Source of the DNA: Jutongia hominis
Lineage (GTDB): Bacteria > Bacillota > Clostridia > Lachnospirales > Lachnospiraceae
Assembly: GCF_014384965.1 (NCBI RefSeq)
Contig: NZ_JACRSW010000031.1
Location: 134,731-198,730, forward strand
Length of the DNA: 64,000 nucleotides
Direction of reading: 5' to 3'
Positions 55,384 through 62,132 of this stretch are shown in pieces (positions within the stretch are counted from its first letter, which is position 1; each line of letters opens with the position of its first letter). A model generated the notes under the pieces. It saw only the letters and a list, made by a program, of their open reading frames with translations, was not told where the DNA came from and searched no databases. A program made the position numbers and the translations under genes.

Positions 55384-55698
55384 GAAAAAGCGCAAAGCCG
55401 GCACGTTGCACTACAAGAATTGCTAAAGCAATTCTTGTTGATGTACCTCTACTATATGAGCAATTTCCTATTCCATAAAAAAGTGCAAAACCAGCGCTTT
55501 GCTATGTGTACCACCACTGTACGAGCAATTTCCTATTCCATAAAAAAGTGCAAAGCCGGCGCGTTGCACTACAAGAATTGCTAAAGCAATTCTTGTTGAT
55601 GTACCTCTACTATATGAGCAGTTTCCTATTCCACGAAAAAGCGCAAAGCCTGCGCTTTGCTATGTGTACCACCACTGTACGAGCAGTTTCCTATTCCA
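55384..55698 (-). repeat. Tandem array of the dispersed terminator repeat, copy D (2 x 157 bp)
   Basis: Two near-identical 157-bp units in tandem (55384-55540 and 55541-55698). Each unit has a long module (two hairpins and tail, about 92 bp) and a short module (one hairpin and tail, about 65 bp). Tail consensus GTACCACTACTGTACGAGCA / TTTCCTATTCC recurs four times. The minus-strand order is the same as at copies A-C. It lies between an ABC transporter gene and secA. Not a CRISPR: no unique spacers. Confidence 0.9.
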
Positions 55699-55699
55699 T

Positions 55700-55755
55700 G
55701 AAAAAACAGCTTTATCCAAAATGCTCTGCCTGTATTGCACTTTGTATAAAGCTGT
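55700..55755 (-). terminator. Terminator of the MarR-ABC exporter unit
   Basis: Minus-strand stem ACAGCTTTAT / ATAAAGCTGT closing a 30-base loop, followed by TTTTTT. It lies about 90 bases past the ABC stop and directly before the repeat array. Confidence 0.7.
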
Positions 55756-55844: not shown

Positions 55845-57683
55845 TTAGCTGACTGTCTCAAACTGGCTCTGATACAGATCCGCGTAGAATCCGCCTTTTT
55901 CCAAAAGCTCTCCGTGTCTGCCCTGCTCAATAATATCTCCATCTTTCATAACAAGGATACAGTCTGCATCACGGATCGTTGACAAACGATGAGCGATCAC
56001 AAAGCTGGTTCTTCCTTCCATCAGATGGTCCATTGCTTTCTGAATACGAGCTTCGGTATAAGTATCAACAGATGAAGTCGCCTCATCTAAGATCATGATC
56101 GGATTATTTGCCAGAATGGCTCTTGCGATGGTCAAAAGCTGCTTTTGTCCCTGAGAAACGTTGCTTGCTTCTTCGTTTAATTCCATCCGGTAACCTCCAG
56201 GCAATGCTTTGATAAAGCTGTGTGCATGCGCGGCTTTGGCTGCTGCTATTACTTCTTCATCTGTCGCATCCAAACGGCCATAACGGATATTTTCCATGAT
56301 CGTTCCTTTAAACAGCCATGTATCCTGTAAAACCATTCCCATTGCATTTCTAAGATCGCGTCTGTTGAAATCACGGATATCATGACCATCCAGACGGATC
56401 GAACCGCTGTTGACATCATAAAAACGCATCAAAAGTTTTACAAGCGTTGTCTTACCTGCACCGGTCGGTCCTACGATTGCTATCTTTCGTCCGGCTTTTA
56501 CATTGGCACTAAAATCATGAATGATCACCTGATTTTCCTGATATCCAAAAGAAATATGGTCAAAGTCAACATTTCCCTGAATATGCTCTTCTTTGACAGG
56601 ATCTTCGATCACCTGTACCTCTTCTTCCTCGTCTAAGAATTCAAAAACACGCTCTGCCGCTGCTGCCATAGACTGTAACATATTCATAACCTGAGCGATT
56701 TGCTGGATCGGCTGCGTAAACTGCTTTACATATTGGATAAATGCCTGGATATCACCAACCTGGATCGTTCCCTGTATCGTTAAAAAGCCACCGGCAATAG
56801 CAACCCCGGCATAGCCTAAGTTTCCGACAAATGCCATGATCGGCATCATCATGCCGGATAAAAACTGTGACTTCCATGCAGAATCATAAAGCACTTCATT
56901 CGTGTTATGGAATTCTTCGACTTCTTTCTTTTCTTTATTAAATGCTTTTACAACATTATGTCCGCCATATGTCTCTTCAATCTTACCATTGATATGACCA
57001 AGATATTCCTGCTGTGTTTTAAAATATTTCTGTGATTTTTTCACAACAATACTGATCAATGCAATGGAGATCGGAAGTATAACCAAGGCGATCAATGTCA
57101 TTAAAGGACTGATTGAAAGCATCATGATCAAGACACCGATCAGCGTTGCAATTGATGTGATCAACTGCGTCACACTCTGATTCAAACTGATACCAAGCGT
57201 ATCGACATCATTGGTAATCCTTGATAAGACTTCACCGTTTGTTCTGCTTTCAAAATATTTCATAGGCATACGATTGATCTTTTCGGATATTTCTTTTCGC
57301 ATCCGGTAACAGATCTTTTGTGTGATGCCGGTCATGATCCAGCCTTGTATCAGGCTAAACAAAGTACTGCATCCATACAGGCACATTACACCGACTAAGA
57401 TCCAGCCGATCTTTGAAAAATCAATACCGCCACTGCCCTGTATTTTTCGCATCAGGCCTTTGGAAAGTTCTGTTGTTGCACGTCCTAATGTTTTAGGTCC
57501 TAATACATTAAAGACCGTAGACCCTACAGCAAACAACATAACAACTACAATTCCGATCTTATAACTGCCAATATACGCAAGTAATTTACCGATCGTTCCT
57601 TTGAAATCTTTCGCTTTTTCCGTCGCACCCATGCCACGCATCGGACCATGACCTCTTCGCATATTCGTTCTGGATTCACTCAT
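55845..57683 (-). CDS. ABC exporter, ATP-binding/permease subunit, catalytic-site partner
   Basis: 612 residues with an N-terminal six-helix permease (about 35-330) and C-terminal ATPase: Walker A GPTGAGKTTLV (about 400), signature NVSQGQKQL (about 503), Walker B MILDEATSSVD with catalytic Glu (about 525), and H-loop IAHRLS (about 558). The start MSESRTNMRRGHGPM has GGAGG nearby and overlaps none of the upstream gene. It is one half of a probable heterodimeric multidrug-type exporter with the gene at 57685-60003. Confidence 0.9.
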   Translation of the reverse strand: MSESRTNMRRGHGPMRGMGATEKAKDFKGTIGKLLAYIGSYKIGIVVVMLFAVGSTVFNVLGPKTLGRATTELSKGLMRKIQGSGGIDFSKIGWILVGVMCLYGCSTLFSLIQGWIMTGITQKICYRMRKEISEKINRMPMKYFESRTNGEVLSRITNDVDTLGISLNQSVTQLITSIATLIGVLIMMLSISPLMTLIALVILPISIALISIVVKKSQKYFKTQQEYLGHINGKIEETYGGHNVVKAFNKEKKEVEEFHNTNEVLYDSAWKSQFLSGMMMPIMAFVGNLGYAGVAIAGGFLTIQGTIQVGDIQAFIQYVKQFTQPIQQIAQVMNMLQSMAAAAERVFEFLDEEEEVQVIEDPVKEEHIQGNVDFDHISFGYQENQVIIHDFSANVKAGRKIAIVGPTGAGKTTLVKLLMRFYDVNSGSIRLDGHDIRDFNRRDLRNAMGMVLQDTWLFKGTIMENIRYGRLDATDEEVIAAAKAAHAHSFIKALPGGYRMELNEEASNVSQGQKQLLTIARAILANNPIMILDEATSSVDTYTEARIQKAMDHLMEGRTSFVIAHRLSTIRDADCILVMKDGDIIEQGRHGELLEKGGFYADLYQSQFETVS

Positions 57684-57684
57684 A

Positions 57685-60003
57685 TTACATAACCTCCTTT
57701 CCCTGTGCTTTTAATTTGGCAATATCCGCTTCTGAAAGTTGGGATTCTGCAATCTCACGATATACGGCACAGTGATCAAAAAGTTCCTGATGTGTTCCGA
57801 TTCCGGCTACTTTTCCCTCGTCTAAGACAATGATCTGCTCTGCATGTAAGATTGTACTGATACGCTGTGCAACAATGATAACAGCTGCTTCTTTTGTTTT
57901 CTTAGAAAGCTCCCGTCGTAAGATGGCATCTGTTTTATAATCAAGTGCCGAAAAACTGTCATCAAAAATGTAGATCTTAGGATCTTTGACGATTGCTCTT
58001 GCAATCGAGAATCTCTGCTTCTGGCCACCTGAAACATTACTTCCTCCCTGTGCGATCGCACTGTCTAATCCATCTTTCTTTCCGTCAATGATCTCTTTTG
58101 CCTGTGCAATACGGGCTGCGTCCATAACCTGCTCTTTTGTTGCATCTTCTTTTCCATATCGTAAATTTGAAGCAATCGTTCCCGAGAACAGAACACCTTT
58201 TTGCGGAACATAACCGATTGCTTCACGCAGGCTTTCCTGCGACATTTCCCTGATATCGGTACCATCTACCATAACTTTACCTTTTGTCACATCAAAGAAT
58301 CTTGGAATCAGATTGACTAATGTAGTCTTACCGCTTCCGGTACCACCGATGATCGCTGTTGTCTGACCGGTCTTTGCTACAAAAGAAATATCTTCTAACA
58401 CATTTTCTTTTGCGCCCGGATAAGCAAACGATACATGTTCAAAGGCTACTTCTCCGTTAGCAACAGAATTTGCTTTCGTATCCGGTTTGTCCTCAATACT
58501 GACTTTTGTATTTAATACTTCATCGATTCGTTCTGCTGATACCGAAGCTCTCGGAAGCATTACGGAAAACATCGTAATCATCAAAAACGCCATAACAATC
58601 TGCATAGAATACGTAATAAATGCAGTCATGGTACCAACCTGAATGGTTCCTGTATTGATCTTATCTGTAGAAACCCATACGATCAGAATGGACACACCGT
58701 ACATGATAAACATCATAAGTGGCATCATAAATGTCATAACACGGTTTGTAAAAAGCATATTCTTTGTCAGTGCAACATTGGCATCGTCAAAACGTTCTTC
58801 TTCTTTCTTTTCTCTTCCAAATGCACGGATAACAGGCAATCCTGTTAAAATCTCTCTGGCAACCAGATTGATCCTATCTACCAAAATCTGCATTTTCTTA
58901 AAGCGTGGCATAGCAACCCCCATTAATACCATGACAACTGCAACCAGTGTGATCACGGCAACCACGATGATCCATTCCATTCCGGACCTGGTACTAAGTA
59001 CTTTGAAGATTCCACCGATTCCTATGATCGGTGCGTATAGGATCATTCGCAAAACCATAGTTTCTACCATCTGGATCTGCTGGATATCATTTGTGCTTCT
59101 GGTGATCAGAGAAGCCGTTGAGAACTGGTTCATCTCAGCATCGGAAAATGACATGACTTTTTCATACATTTTTCCTCGAAGCTCTTTACCAATACCGGCA
59201 CCCACTCTGGCAGAGAAAAAACCTGCCAAGATTGCGGAAGCTGCCATCAAAAATGCCATACAAAGCATCTTTGCTCCTGCGATCCATAAATATCCTGTCT
59301 GTCTTGCATCAATATCGATCCCTGTTTTCTTTTCTTCGGCAATCGTTGAAGTGATCGCTGTTGATCTGACCATTGACTCGCCTAAGGTATCAAACTTCTT
59401 TTCCATTTTGCTGCGCATCGTAAGAAGTATCTTTTGATCCATTGTTCCACTGTTTATCATAGCAGCAAAGACCGGACGTTCGTCAATGTATTCAACTTTT
59501 ACTTTCTTTCCGCTTTTCTTTACGGTCTTTGTCGTCACCTGATAAGGAATCCCCAGTTTAGCAAACATTCCTTTGACCTGCTCTTCCTGTAACGAACCTT
59601 TTGGAAGCTTTTGCTGCTGTTCTAATTGCTCAAAAAAACTGCTCTTTTCTACAGAACTTAATTGTGCGTTTGCAATAAAAGCAACTGCTAGCTGATCATC
59701 AAGCTTTTCTAACGTATCTTTCTTCAGATCTTTTCTTACATAATATTTTCCGTCTTTTTTATACGCTTTTTGAAAATCCTTTTGCTCCGACGATTTCATA
59801 AAAAGCTGTACATATTGGTATTCTTCTGTTCTGATCTTTTCGGGAAGTACATGTTCTACTCCTTTGTTCTGAATACCGGTATCAATAATATCTGACGTGT
59901 ACTGCGGCAGTGACAGGTCACAAAACGCCTGCACTAAAAGCAATACAATGATAATTCCTACTGTCGGCAGATATTTTTTCAAATATTGAAATATTCGTAA
60001 CAT
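57685..60003 (-). CDS. ABC exporter subunit with degenerate ATP site and large extracytoplasmic insertion
   Basis: 772 residues. The first helix is about 12-30; then about 190 polar residues (45-235) before the next helix, an extracytoplasmic domain unlike the roughly 580-residue norm. ATPase: Walker A GGTGSGKTT, signature NVSGGQKQRF, Walker B IYIFDDSFSALD with Asp instead of catalytic Glu, and AQR instead of an H-loop His. In heterodimeric exporters (BmrCD-like), one subunit has such a degenerate site, and the partner here (55845-57683) is complete. Likely drug or peptide export, substrate unknown. Confidence 0.88.
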   Translation of the reverse strand: MLRIFQYLKKYLPTVGIIIVLLLVQAFCDLSLPQYTSDIIDTGIQNKGVEHVLPEKIRTEEYQYVQLFMKSSEQKDFQKAYKKDGKYYVRKDLKKDTLEKLDDQLAVAFIANAQLSSVEKSSFFEQLEQQQKLPKGSLQEEQVKGMFAKLGIPYQVTTKTVKKSGKKVKVEYIDERPVFAAMINSGTMDQKILLTMRSKMEKKFDTLGESMVRSTAITSTIAEEKKTGIDIDARQTGYLWIAGAKMLCMAFLMAASAILAGFFSARVGAGIGKELRGKMYEKVMSFSDAEMNQFSTASLITRSTNDIQQIQMVETMVLRMILYAPIIGIGGIFKVLSTRSGMEWIIVVAVITLVAVVMVLMGVAMPRFKKMQILVDRINLVAREILTGLPVIRAFGREKKEEERFDDANVALTKNMLFTNRVMTFMMPLMMFIMYGVSILIVWVSTDKINTGTIQVGTMTAFITYSMQIVMAFLMITMFSVMLPRASVSAERIDEVLNTKVSIEDKPDTKANSVANGEVAFEHVSFAYPGAKENVLEDISFVAKTGQTTAIIGGTGSGKTTLVNLIPRFFDVTKGKVMVDGTDIREMSQESLREAIGYVPQKGVLFSGTIASNLRYGKEDATKEQVMDAARIAQAKEIIDGKKDGLDSAIAQGGSNVSGGQKQRFSIARAIVKDPKIYIFDDSFSALDYKTDAILRRELSKKTKEAAVIIVAQRISTILHAEQIIVLDEGKVAGIGTHQELFDHCAVYREIAESQLSEADIAKLKAQGKEVM

Positions 60004-60019
60004 CTTTTTCCTCCTGTTT

Positions 60020-60493
60020 TTAATTATTTTCTGTATTCATATCATTCATTACTTCTTTTGATACTTCATAAAATTCATTCATAAAATCAATGATCTGACC
60101 AAGCTTTTCTTCTCCAAACCGTTTAACGATCTGATCTGTGTAAGCAGCAAGTACAATACGGCCTTCTTTGACTTTCTCTTTACCAAATTCGGTCAACGTA
60201 ACCTGCACATTTCTCTTATCCTGCTGATCCATACTGCGTGTGATCATATCCTTCTTTTCTAAGCCACGAAGAATCTTTGAGATCATCGGCGGTGTACATT
60301 GCATCATTTCAGCTAAACACCTGACACCGGGATGTTTCATGGCATCGTTTTCTAAAACTTTTTCCACCTGTACTTCATAAAGAGAATTCATGATGATCCA
60401 TTCGTTCTGATTGAAATTATCCTGAATCGAATCTAACTTGATCTGATGGATCTTCTTCTCACAAATCAGCATTTGTCGAAACAAATTATTCAA
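60020..60493 (-). CDS. MarR-family transcriptional regulator
   Basis: 157 residues, winged helix. NEWIIMNSLYEVQVEK precedes the HTH: VRCLAEMMQCTPPMISKILRGLEKKDMITRS-type helices (about 75-105), then the wing (DQQDKRNVQVTLTEFGKEKV). Dimerisation helices flank it. Start is a TTG (60493) with GGAGG 7 bases upstream. It precedes both ABC subunits in one unit and probably represses it; an inducer would be an exported compound. A 526-bp quasi-palindrome begins 32 bases upstream. Confidence 0.87.
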   Translation of the reverse strand: MNNLFRQMLICEKKIHQIKLDSIQDNFNQNEWIIMNSLYEVQVEKVLENDAMKHPGVRCLAEMMQCTPPMISKILRGLEKKDMITRSMDQQDKRNVQVTLTEFGKEKVKEGRIVLAAYTDQIVKRFGEEKLGQIIDFMNEFYEVSKEVMNDMNTENN

Positions 60494-60524
60494 ATCACTT
60501 CCTCCTTCCACAAAGATTCCCTAC

Positions 60525-61050
60525 GATATCTGCCAGTCAAAGACATTTTTATGTCCCGGTATTATAGCATTTTTCTATCTGACAACATACCAGAGTTATG
60601 CCTGCTTTTTTATTTATGTTATCTTTTAGAGCATTGTCTCGTCAGATAAGAATAACTATGTTTTTTTGCTTTTTTGCCCTGATTATGGGCGCTCTCATCT
60701 GATATAGGGGCAAGGCCAGTCCTGATGTATATTGCTGTTGGGACTCTCTAAGCCCGTCGCCACTTGCACATTAAAAGGAGTTTTTATCTTTTAATGTGCT
60801 ATGTGTACGCTACGTGGCTTTGCGAAGCGGAAGCGTGTCCTACACAGCAATGTTACTCAGGCTGAGTCGCCCCTATAGTTATGACCCGCGCCCAATCAGC
60901 AAAAAGGCTAAAAAAACAGTTATTCTAATCAGACGGCATGCCTATCTAAAAGATAAAATAAATAAAAAAGCAGACACAAATCTAATCCATTGTCAGATAG
61001 AAAAATGCTATGATATGCTTACATTAAAATGTTTTTGACTGGCAGATATC
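60525..61050. repeat. 526-bp quasi-palindromic element
   Basis: The ends are inverted copies: GATATCTGCCAGTCAA at 60525-60540 and its complement at 61035-61050. Continuing inward the arms stay alike for about 170-200 bases with gaps: ATAGCATTTTTCTATCTGACAA, CTGCTTTTTTATTTAT, ATCTTTTAGA, AGAATAACT and a T-rich block are shared. The palindrome surrounds a compact central region (about 60704-60876). Motifs of the type TATCTGxC recur on both arms. No ORF explains it; a MarR gene lies 32 bases from the left end, ung about 390 from the right. Confidence 0.85.
60704..60876. ncRNA. Candidate structured RNA core of the palindrome
   Basis: Closed by an 8-9 bp perfect stem TATAGGGGC / GCCCCTATA (60703-60711 and 60869-60877). 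Inside: AGTCC/GGACT (60718-60722, 60741-60745); a perfect 12-bp stem with GCACATTAAAAG arms (60766-60777, 60788-60799); TGTGTA/TACACA (60802-60807, 60841-60846) enclosing CGCT/AGCG and GCTT/AAGC; and CTCAG/CTGAG (60856-60866). GC-rich unpaired blocks such as TCTCTAAGCCCGTCGCC stand out from the AT-rich surroundings. It resembles a conserved structured noncoding RNA; the raiA motif class is one possibility from memory, not verified. Strand undetermined. Confidence 0.5.
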
Positions 61051-61442
61051 CGATATACACTATATGAACCAAATTAATTATTAACCTGGTTAACCATTTG
61101 GTGTAGTTGCTATGCTAGCACTCTTTTCTTGATGTTGCAATACTTTTTTTGAGTTTTAAGACTTTAGATATATTGTTAAGGTTATGTTATGAAAAAACAG
61201 AGAAAATTTCAGTTCCCTCATTCTTGCCAAAGAAACAAAAAGATATCAAAACAAAGCAATCTGTTTTATTTGGCATTTTCAGTATGAGCAATACTTACCC
61301 AAAAAACAGGTTCTTTGTCCGATATCTTTTACATAAATGAAGTTATTGTTATCTGTGTTACTATTTATTCATATAACGAATGATGCAGCTAAATATGGCT
61401 GACCATATTTTCATCTGATCATATAATGAGTTTGCTATATGG

Positions 61443-62132
61443 CTAATTAGTTGTATGGCAATTCTCGATCTGCCAATCGATCGGTTCTACGCCATTGTCC
61501 TGTAAAAATTGATTTGCCTGACTAAAGTGTTTGCAGCCAAAAAAACCACGATATGCTGAAAGCGGACTTGGATGTGGTGCCTTTAAGATTAAGTGCTTTG
61601 GATTAGTCAGCATTGGTATCTTAGACTGTGCCGGTCTTCCCCACAACATATAAACAATCGGGCGATCCTGCGCATTGATTGCCTGAATCACCGCATCCGT
61701 AAATTGCTCCCATCCCTTTCCCTGATGAGAATTCGCCTGATGTGCACGTACCGTCAATACCGTGTTTAACAAAAGCACACCCTGATCAGCCCATTTTTTC
61801 AAATAGCCATTATCCGGGATGTAACATCCTAAATCACTTTGCAATTCTTTGTAAATATTTTGCAAAGAAGGCGGGATTTCTTTTTGATCCTGCGGAACAG
61901 AAAAACTCAAGCCATGTGCCTGATGCACATTATGATAGGGATCCTGCCCTAAGATCAATACTTTTACTTTTGATAATGGTGTGAAATGAAATGCATTAAA
62001 AATATCATCTGACGGCGGATATACTACAACCTTACTGTATTCATCTTTTACAAATTCAAACAAATCCCTGTAATATGTTTTTGAAAATTCCGGTTGGATC
62101 GCATCCAGCCAGTCATTTGTGATCATTGCCAT
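61443..62132 (-). CDS. ung: Uracil-DNA glycosylase
   Basis: 229 residues, family 1. The GQDPYHN motif (residues about 63-69, catalytic Asp), the PPSLQNIYKEL loop, LLLNTVLTVRAHQANSH (Ser/Asn pocket) and HPSPLSAYRGFFG (about 190, catalytic His) are all present. It removes uracil from DNA to begin base-excision repair. AGGAGT stands about 9 bases before the first ATG. It follows hisF by 29 bases on the same strand. Confidence 0.96.
   Translation of the reverse strand: MAMITNDWLDAIQPEFSKTYYRDLFEFVKDEYSKVVVYPPSDDIFNAFHFTPLSKVKVLILGQDPYHNVHQAHGLSFSVPQDQKEIPPSLQNIYKELQSDLGCYIPDNGYLKKWADQGVLLLNTVLTVRAHQANSHQGKGWEQFTDAVIQAINAQDRPIVYMLWGRPAQSKIPMLTNPKHLILKAPHPSPLSAYRGFFGCKHFSQANQFLQDNGVEPIDWQIENCHTTN

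What the first reader, a model, noticed from the sequence alone, without database searches (positions are those of the whole stretch)
60525..61050. A 526-bp quasi-palindrome with a folded core and no gene: candidate novel structured RNA
Seen: inverted arms of about 170-200 bases (first 16 bases of each end perfect, later blocks conserved with gaps) around a core of about 173 bases closed by a 9-bp perfect stem and holding at least four internal stems, one of 12 bp. The core is GC-richer than its surroundings. Known: long conserved structured RNAs (raiA, ROOL, OLE, HEARO types) occur in gene-poor spacers of Firmicutes. Inference: the element is a noncoding RNA whose ends pair, or a large bidirectional regulatory element. 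I could not match it to a class with certainty; raiA-like is my best guess for the core from memory. If not in Rfam, it would be new.
Basis: partly seen in the sequence, partly recalled or inferred. Interest (0 to 1): 0.82.

Follow-up and report, generated by a model that had tools for sequence, protein, structure and literature searches.

The report
Mobile DNA palindrome with conserved head
The 526-base mirror-image DNA in this gut-bacterium window is one copy of a widespread, gene-less, apparently jumping DNA repeat whose folded tip is conserved across many related bacteria while its arms are not, so it is probably not the new RNA gene it was taken for.

Summary
The palindrome is real: 60525-61050 folds end to end on either strand (z about -21) and is the only long inverted repeat found in the window. 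Rfam gives no credible match. A spurious ORF in it has 26 relatives among metagenome proteins, so this copy is not alone. Its tip (60738-60843, minus strand) is a conserved 91-position "head": a model built without the window finds it at 54.3 bits, E 1.8e-11. Heads occur in 40 of 99 relatives, dozens of copies in some. Their stems covary (97.2% of cells paired, 652 double changes, 104 distinct heads), yet the arms differ between families. In the arms G-U and A-C mismatches are equal (105 and 106), heads show no strand preference relative to genes, and paired heads mostly face each other: DNA is favoured over RNA. In one relative the headed palindromes are MITEs: 13 of 16 copies have exact 7-8 bp target duplications; three long ones elsewhere have them too. 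The window copy shows none outside its ends. Best reading: a non-autonomous mobile palindrome of an apparently undescribed headed family. What reads the head is unknown.

The parts
60525..61050 (.). whole palindromic element (526 bp); ends GATATCTGCCAGTCAAA / TTTGACTGGCAGATATC
60525..60630 (+). outer left arm, 84% complementary to 60945-61050
60945..61050 (-). outer right arm
60640..60674 (+). inner left arm, 80% complementary to 60901-60935
60901..60935 (-). inner right arm
60703..60711 (+). 5' side of the perfect 9-bp stem that closes the core (TATAGGGGC)
60869..60877 (+). 3' side of the 9-bp closing stem (GCCCCTATA)
60738..60843 (-). conserved head module (91 model positions) shared with relatives
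   Evidence: 54.3 bits, E 1.8e-11 with model R2, built without the window; 70.3 bits with R1, whose alignment includes it
60826..60837 (-). conserved, mostly unpaired stretch CACGCTTCCGCT on the 5' side of the head
   Evidence: alignments A5, A6, A7
60766..60777 (+). variable apical stem of the head, one side
   Evidence: double changes in helix 5
60788..60799 (+). variable apical stem of the head, other side
60796..61038 (+). spurious 80-aa ORF across part of the head and the right arm; used as a probe for other copies
   Evidence: 26 further relatives, E 1.2e-19 to 1.4e-8; no Pfam match
60020..60511 (-). neighbouring MarR-family regulator gene; listed start 13 bp from the element
   Evidence: ORF; Pfam MarR 5.5e-9
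61443..62132 (-). neighbouring uracil-DNA glycosylase gene
   Evidence: Pfam UDG 2.2e-19

Best explanation
It is a non-autonomous mobile DNA palindrome (MITE-like), one copy of a headed-palindrome family of Lachnospiraceae. SHOWN: the copy is a full palindrome with a strand-asymmetric head at its tip; the head recurs, with covarying stems, at the tips of palindromes with different arms, and a head model matches 40 of 99 relatives; in G003 such elements are dispersed MITEs with target duplications, and closely similar termini bound a DDE-transposase gene. INFERRED: the window copy spread the same way, moved in trans by a transposase recognising its ends. The arms stay complementary because one arm is repeatedly copied from the other during replication or repair of the hairpin, and/or because the DNA must fold. 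The head is the folded-DNA feature read by a still unknown protein, which would be why it is kept while the arms drift. Its place just before marR is probably incidental; it may displace or supply the marR promoter (untested).
For: Whole-length palindrome on both strands. 26 relatives of its spurious ORF, most with different downstream sequence. Head found by a model built without it. Covariation score 0.711 against 0.231 shuffled and at most 0.088 slid. Arms: 4068 Watson-Crick, 105 G-U, 106 A-C, 300 other pairs; head 16 G-U, 29 A-C. In G030 15 A-type stems are 87% complementary within a copy but 56% identical between copies, with 1021 both-arm against 466 one-arm differences. In G003 13 of 16 copies with both termini have exact 7-8 bp target duplications, control 2 of 240; a DDE transposase gene lies between termini 1 and 2 mismatches from the searched pattern. 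3 of 8 elements of 450 bp or more (L241, L254, L255; two genomes) have exact 8-9 bp duplications, control 15 of 8880. In G030 19 of 21 loci are intergenic.
Against: The window copy has no 7-8 bp duplication outside its ends; a 6-bp GATATC, 4-bp ATAT or 2-bp TA duplication cannot be told from the palindrome itself. Its ends do not resemble the G003 termini beyond chance (1019 of 4000 random 22-mers score as well). No DNA of a second copy of the window's subfamily was obtained, and its own genome is not held. Of 95 elements with arms of 25 nt or more only 4 show a duplication of 7 or more, though most ends were only estimated. Double compensatory change is also what a structured RNA would show. 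One of the five measures, the number of further pair types, is lower than in the shuffles (47 against 52.0).
Confidence: 0.8

Rival explanations
1. A structured noncoding RNA (or RNA regulatory element) in which the head is the functional RNA and the arms help it fold.
For: Very strong covariation of the head; conserved, mostly unpaired CACGCTYYCGCT stretch.
Against: No Rfam family at its threshold. G-U pairs are 16 of 2235 head cells and not in excess in the arms (105 against 106 A-C). Orientation to neighbouring genes is even: 33 same and 25 opposite upstream, 26 and 31 downstream. In convergent pairs one head would always be antisense (12 pairs in the G030 stretches; 9 elsewhere). Tens of copies in some genomes. 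Arm-to-arm copying could mask a wobble signal, so this is not excluded.
Confidence: 0.12
2. A REP/BIME-type repeat moved by a Y1 (HUH, RAYT-like) transposase acting on folded single-stranded DNA. (A sub-case of a mobile palindrome, so not exclusive of the best explanation.)
For: Dispersed, mostly intergenic palindromes with an asymmetric tip; heads often in inverted pairs, as said of BIMEs (PMC2817692, start of abstract in search listings).
Against: Y1_Tnp is in 23 of 40 head-bearing and 14 of 21 head-free genomes; G018, G041, G003, G001 and G011, with 19 or more head matches each, have none. No head in the 30 Y1 loci fetched, which are only the best matches. Elements run from about 100 to 690 bp, against 20-40 bp for REPs (PMC3733652, abstract start and passages).
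Confidence: 0.1
3. A plain decayed inverted duplication with no mobility and no function.
For: Differences between the window's arms are mostly transversions with no strand bias (7 and 6 wobble-type, 20 transversions).
Against: Head conserved across many genomes; arms co-vary within copies; target duplications in relatives.
Confidence: 0.03
4. A promoter/operator region of the marR-ABC operon built as a palindrome.
For: The element ends 13 bp before the listed marR start, so the operon's promoter must lie in it or beyond it.
Against: Relatives sit beside genes in all orientations; promoter-like sites around it are at chance level (5 found, 4.4 expected).
Confidence: 0.05

Closest known systems
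[quoted passage not shown]
   Same: Small, gene-less, inverted termini; multicopy with target duplications in G003, and duplications at three long relatives.
   Different: Palindromic along the whole length (here 526 bp, up to 685 bp), with one conserved tip shared by elements whose termini differ; no duplication seen at the window copy.
REP / BIME / REPIN palindromes
   Same: Dispersed intergenic palindromes, often in inverted pairs.
   Different: Mostly several times longer than the 20-40 bp of REPs; no association with Y1 transposases found. A GTAG or CGTC foot was not looked for.
IS1182-family insertion sequences
   Same: The transposase between the G003-type termini matches the NCBIfam IS1182 model best (109.7 bits, below its cut-off of 270), and Pfam DDE_Tnp_1_6, DUF772 and DDE_Tnp_1 above cut-off.
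   Different: The window's ends are not significantly like those termini; no transposase was recognised among the five window ORFs scanned, and the rest of the window was not scanned.
raiA, ROOL, OLE, HEARO RNAs
   Different: None of these covariance models matched on either strand.

Membership tests
Headed palindromes (defined here by model R2) | 91-position head with conserved CACGCTYYCGCT stretch and covarying stems | tested here: met
   54.3 bits, E 1.8e-11, model built without the window
Headed palindromes (defined here by model R2) | Head at the tip of self-complementary arms | tested here: met
   window arms 214/220 nt, element 526 bp
MITE | Inverted termini and no gene | tested here: met
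   17-bp perfect ends; only a spurious ORF
MITE | Dispersed multiple copies | tested here: inconclusive
   26 relatives of the ORF on other contigs; no DNA copy of this subfamily found (only 2 candidates per genome scored in 16 and 51)
MITE | Target-site duplication | tested here: inconclusive
   none of 7-8 bp at the window copy; GATATC, ATAT or TA would be hidden in the palindrome
MITE | Cognate transposase with the same ends | tested here: inconclusive
   found for the G003 type only; own genome not held
REP/BIME | Y1 (RAYT) transposase associated with the repeat | tested here: not met
   23 of 40 head-bearing and 14 of 21 head-free genomes; 0 heads in 30 Y1 loci
REP/BIME | 20-40 bp palindrome | tested here: not met
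   526 bp here
REP/BIME | GTAG or CGTC foot | not tested
   not looked for
raiA and other Rfam RNAs | Covariance-model match at the family threshold | tested here: not met
   the only sub-threshold matches were SNORD77 0.18 and RT-17 0.25 and MIR2646 0.065 on L119
Structured noncoding RNA | Strand-specific folding constraint (wobble pairs favoured on one strand) | tested here: not met
   arms 105 G-U and 106 A-C; head 16 and 29
Structured noncoding RNA | Discrete transcript | not testable with these tools
   no RNA-seq data

The most novel reading that the evidence does not exclude
The head is a mobile-DNA module in its own right: a folded DNA signal shared by palindromes with different termini, with stems kept by continual copying of one arm from the other. 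It would be a new kind of recognition site, read as a hairpin or cruciform by an unknown Lachnospiraceae protein, that lets long palindromes survive or move.
Probability: 0.35. Interest if true: 0.82.

Novelty: new variant of a known kind. Interest (0 to 1): 0.6.

Why it matters
Long palindromes are normally unstable in bacteria (recalled), yet some of these genomes carry dozens, capped by the same folded tip. That offers a natural comparative system for asking how long DNA palindromes persist, how their arms stay matched while drifting, and what protein reads the tip. It also warns that very strong covariation need not mean RNA: here the double changes come with almost no wobble pairs and no strand preference.

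Tried and rejected
Whole-element DNA searches: plasmids and phages none, 8 genomes none, 395 relatives seven hits of 22-46 nt (2 candidates per genome scored), rejected as chance because no long palindrome covers them. The ORF protein P0012 against plasmids and phages: none. A 23-base tip pattern with up to 3 mismatches: 0 of 28 genus genomes, although the later model finds heads in 25 of them, so that blank meant little. Viral contigs: four scans gave no relative; 12 stretches matched a pattern but none was confirmed, and the pattern matches only 22 of 104 known heads. The ORF-protein alignment A4 in 291 class-level genomes: none. Kinship of the window's ends with the G003 termini: not supported. 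The tandem repeat 55385-55706 was suspected as kin; the unfiltered R1 scan of the window reports nothing there up to E 10. A first split of G030 heads into two types was wrong and was redone. Y1 association rejected. Promoters at chance; 2 terminator-like sites against 0.3 expected, one in the element, not pursued.

Full report
WHAT IS THERE. The window is from a member of the Lachnospiraceae whose species seems not to be among the held genomes: no genome is held for it, its MarR protein has no close relative in the genome contigs and eight in the protein collection, seven of them on contigs under 3 kb and one on a 94-kb contig, while its uracil-DNA glycosylase is up to 90% identical to Lachnospiraceae proteins. 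The element at 60525-61050 lies between marR and the glycosylase gene. It is palindromic over its whole length: 106-nt outer arms 84% complementary, inner arms 80%, a 9-bp closing stem and a 12-bp apical stem. Either strand folds at about -255 kcal/mol, z about -21, with 0 of 100 shuffles as good. No other inverted repeat of 30 nt or more within 2.5 kb was reported in the window. Differences between its arms are 7 wobble-type on one strand, 6 on the other, and 20 transversions: no sign of a favoured RNA strand.

IT IS NOT A KNOWN RNA AND NOT UNIQUE. In 59500-62000 Rfam gives two matches up to E 5, both far below their gathering scores: SNORD77 (0.18) and RT-17 (0.25, 60598-60717 minus, inside the element). 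The whole window has only a tRNA at gathering thresholds. DNA searches of plasmids, phages and 395 relatives gave nothing convincing. The 80-aa ORF in the element is judged spurious, but used as a probe against 5.8 billion predicted proteins it found 26 others, E 1.2e-19 to 1.4e-8, on contigs of up to 379 kb. They share the core and part of the right arm, and most then diverge, as copies of a dispersed repeat do. Their DNA could not be fetched, and their hosts are not told.

THE HEAD. A 198-base core search in 397 family genomes gave one 30-nt hit, in G003. It lies at the tip of another palindrome with quite different arms. That palindrome is repeated in G003, and a motif scan of fetched loci found the same tip on further palindromes. 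Ten tips including the window's were aligned (A5; 22 predicted pairs, 14 with double changes) and modelled (R1). R1 matched 40 of 99 relatives of G003 at E 0.01 or less: 25 of the 28 genus members, 15 of the next 33 (G031-G063), and 0 of the last 38 (G243-G280, whose kinship the tool does not tell). Stricter filters were used, and four genomes reach the limit of 43 scored candidates, so counts are minima. Over 93 chosen sources R1 gave 127 matches, 104 distinct. A second model, R2, from 21 tips without the window, finds the window at 60738-60843 minus with 54.3 bits, E 1.8e-11. Most of its members had been found with R1, so it is independent in sequence but not in discovery. In the 80 loci R2 finds five heads, two of them in its own training set, and one convergent pair (L054). 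Seven relatives' loci searched against Rfam gave one match, MIR2646 at 0.065, far below its gathering score.

COVARIATION. On 104 distinct heads 97.2% of 2235 cells are paired, 20 of 22 pairs show double changes (652 cells), and the covariation score is 0.711 against 0.231 in shuffles and at most 0.088 when slid; the number of further pair types goes the other way (47 against 52.0). The alignment was fitted to the model, which flatters the score. Wobble pairs are only 16 cells, and A-C mismatches 29. The arms have 4068 Watson-Crick, 105 G-U, 106 A-C and 300 other pairs. An RNA fold should favour G-U over A-C on its strand; neither is favoured. In published GTAG REPs frequent G-T pairing was taken to suggest RNA function (PMC3733652, passages), so the contrast is informative. 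In G030 15 A-type stems are 87% complementary within a copy but only 56% identical between copies, with 1021 both-arm and 466 one-arm differences; 16 B-type stems give 87%, 64%, 985 and 515. These are pairwise sums over related copies, not independent events. Arms that change together fit arm-to-arm copying, selection for folding of the DNA, or both.

ARRANGEMENT. In 779,801 bases of G030, from contigs chosen because they hold heads, R1 gives 39 matches, three of them weak. The 36 strong ones form 21 loci: 12 convergent pairs, one triple, one same-direction pair at a stretch end, and 7 singles; 19 of the 21 loci are intergenic by a simple ORF caller. Elsewhere there are 44 single-head loci and 9 pairs within 600 bp, all convergent; 10 of 66 heads fall in called ORFs, some of which may be spurious. 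Heads do not follow gene direction: upstream gene 33 same, 25 opposite; downstream 26 and 31.

MOBILITY. Of 21 fetched G003 copies 16 have both termini recognisable, and 13 of these have exact 7-8 bp target duplications, against 2 of 240 cross-copy controls. Termini 1 and 2 mismatches from the searched pattern bound a 546-aa DDE transposase ORF in L169, itself flanked by ATGTCAT on both sides (read by eye). Its Pfam matches DDE_Tnp_1_6, DUF772 and DDE_Tnp_1 are above cut-off; the best NCBIfam match, IS1182, is below. Long headed palindromes like the window's occur elsewhere: L254 (587 bp), L255 (590), L241 (685), L188 (624), L190 (642), L189 (576). Of the 8 elements of 450 bp or more, window included and one (L218) probably a paired-head artefact, 3 have exact 8-9 bp duplications; control 15 of 8880. 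By eye their termini differ from those of G003 and of the window, so the same head rides on different termini. Over all 95 elements with arms of 25 nt or more only 4 show a duplication. The window copy has none of 7-8 bp, and its ends are not significantly like the G003 termini. Whether GATATC, ATAT or TA is a hidden duplication cannot be told.

RIVALS. Y1 transposases, expected for REP-like repeats, are in 23 of 40 head-bearing and 14 of 21 head-free genomes and absent from several head-rich ones; none of the 30 Y1 loci fetched holds a head. RNA function remains possible, because arm-to-arm copying could mask a wobble signal, but the lack of strand preference and the convergent pairs speak against it.

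CONCLUSION. The palindrome is most likely a non-autonomous mobile DNA element, one copy of a headed-palindrome family. Shown: the palindrome, the shared head, covariation, copy number in relatives, target duplications in relatives. Inferred: mobility of this copy, arm-to-arm copying, recognition of the head by a protein. Four literature searches brought no description of such a family. PMC3733652 and PMC10969869 were seen as passages, the other papers only in listings.

Noticed in passing
window 55385-55706: Two copies of a 158-bp tandem repeat (93% matches) with hairpins, between the 52544-55141 gene (secA by recognition, not tested) and the ABC transporter pair; not matched by the head model.
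   Followed up: partly
window 55845-61442: The marR gene and two ABC exporter genes sit between the glycosylase gene and the 52544-55141 gene. In L001 (strain D16-51) the two ABC genes follow the glycosylase gene after 23 bp with no marR; in L005, L007 and L058 the two flanks lie within about 200 bp of each other without ABC genes.
   Followed up: partly
L289, L281, L279, L282 (G030 stretches): Ends of the paired-head elements show partial tandem duplications of one hairpin arm, as slippage at a hairpin would leave.
   Followed up: no
L171:270-334 (G003:C24:37269-37333): A 65-bp minimal element with the termini of the G003 headed palindromes but no head.
   Followed up: no
L117:1516-1584: A short head on a 19-nt stem just after what looks like a gene end, among the smallest members seen.
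   Followed up: no
proteins P0010-P0035: Gene callers predict small proteins across these palindromes in public collections; such entries are probably spurious.
   Followed up: partly
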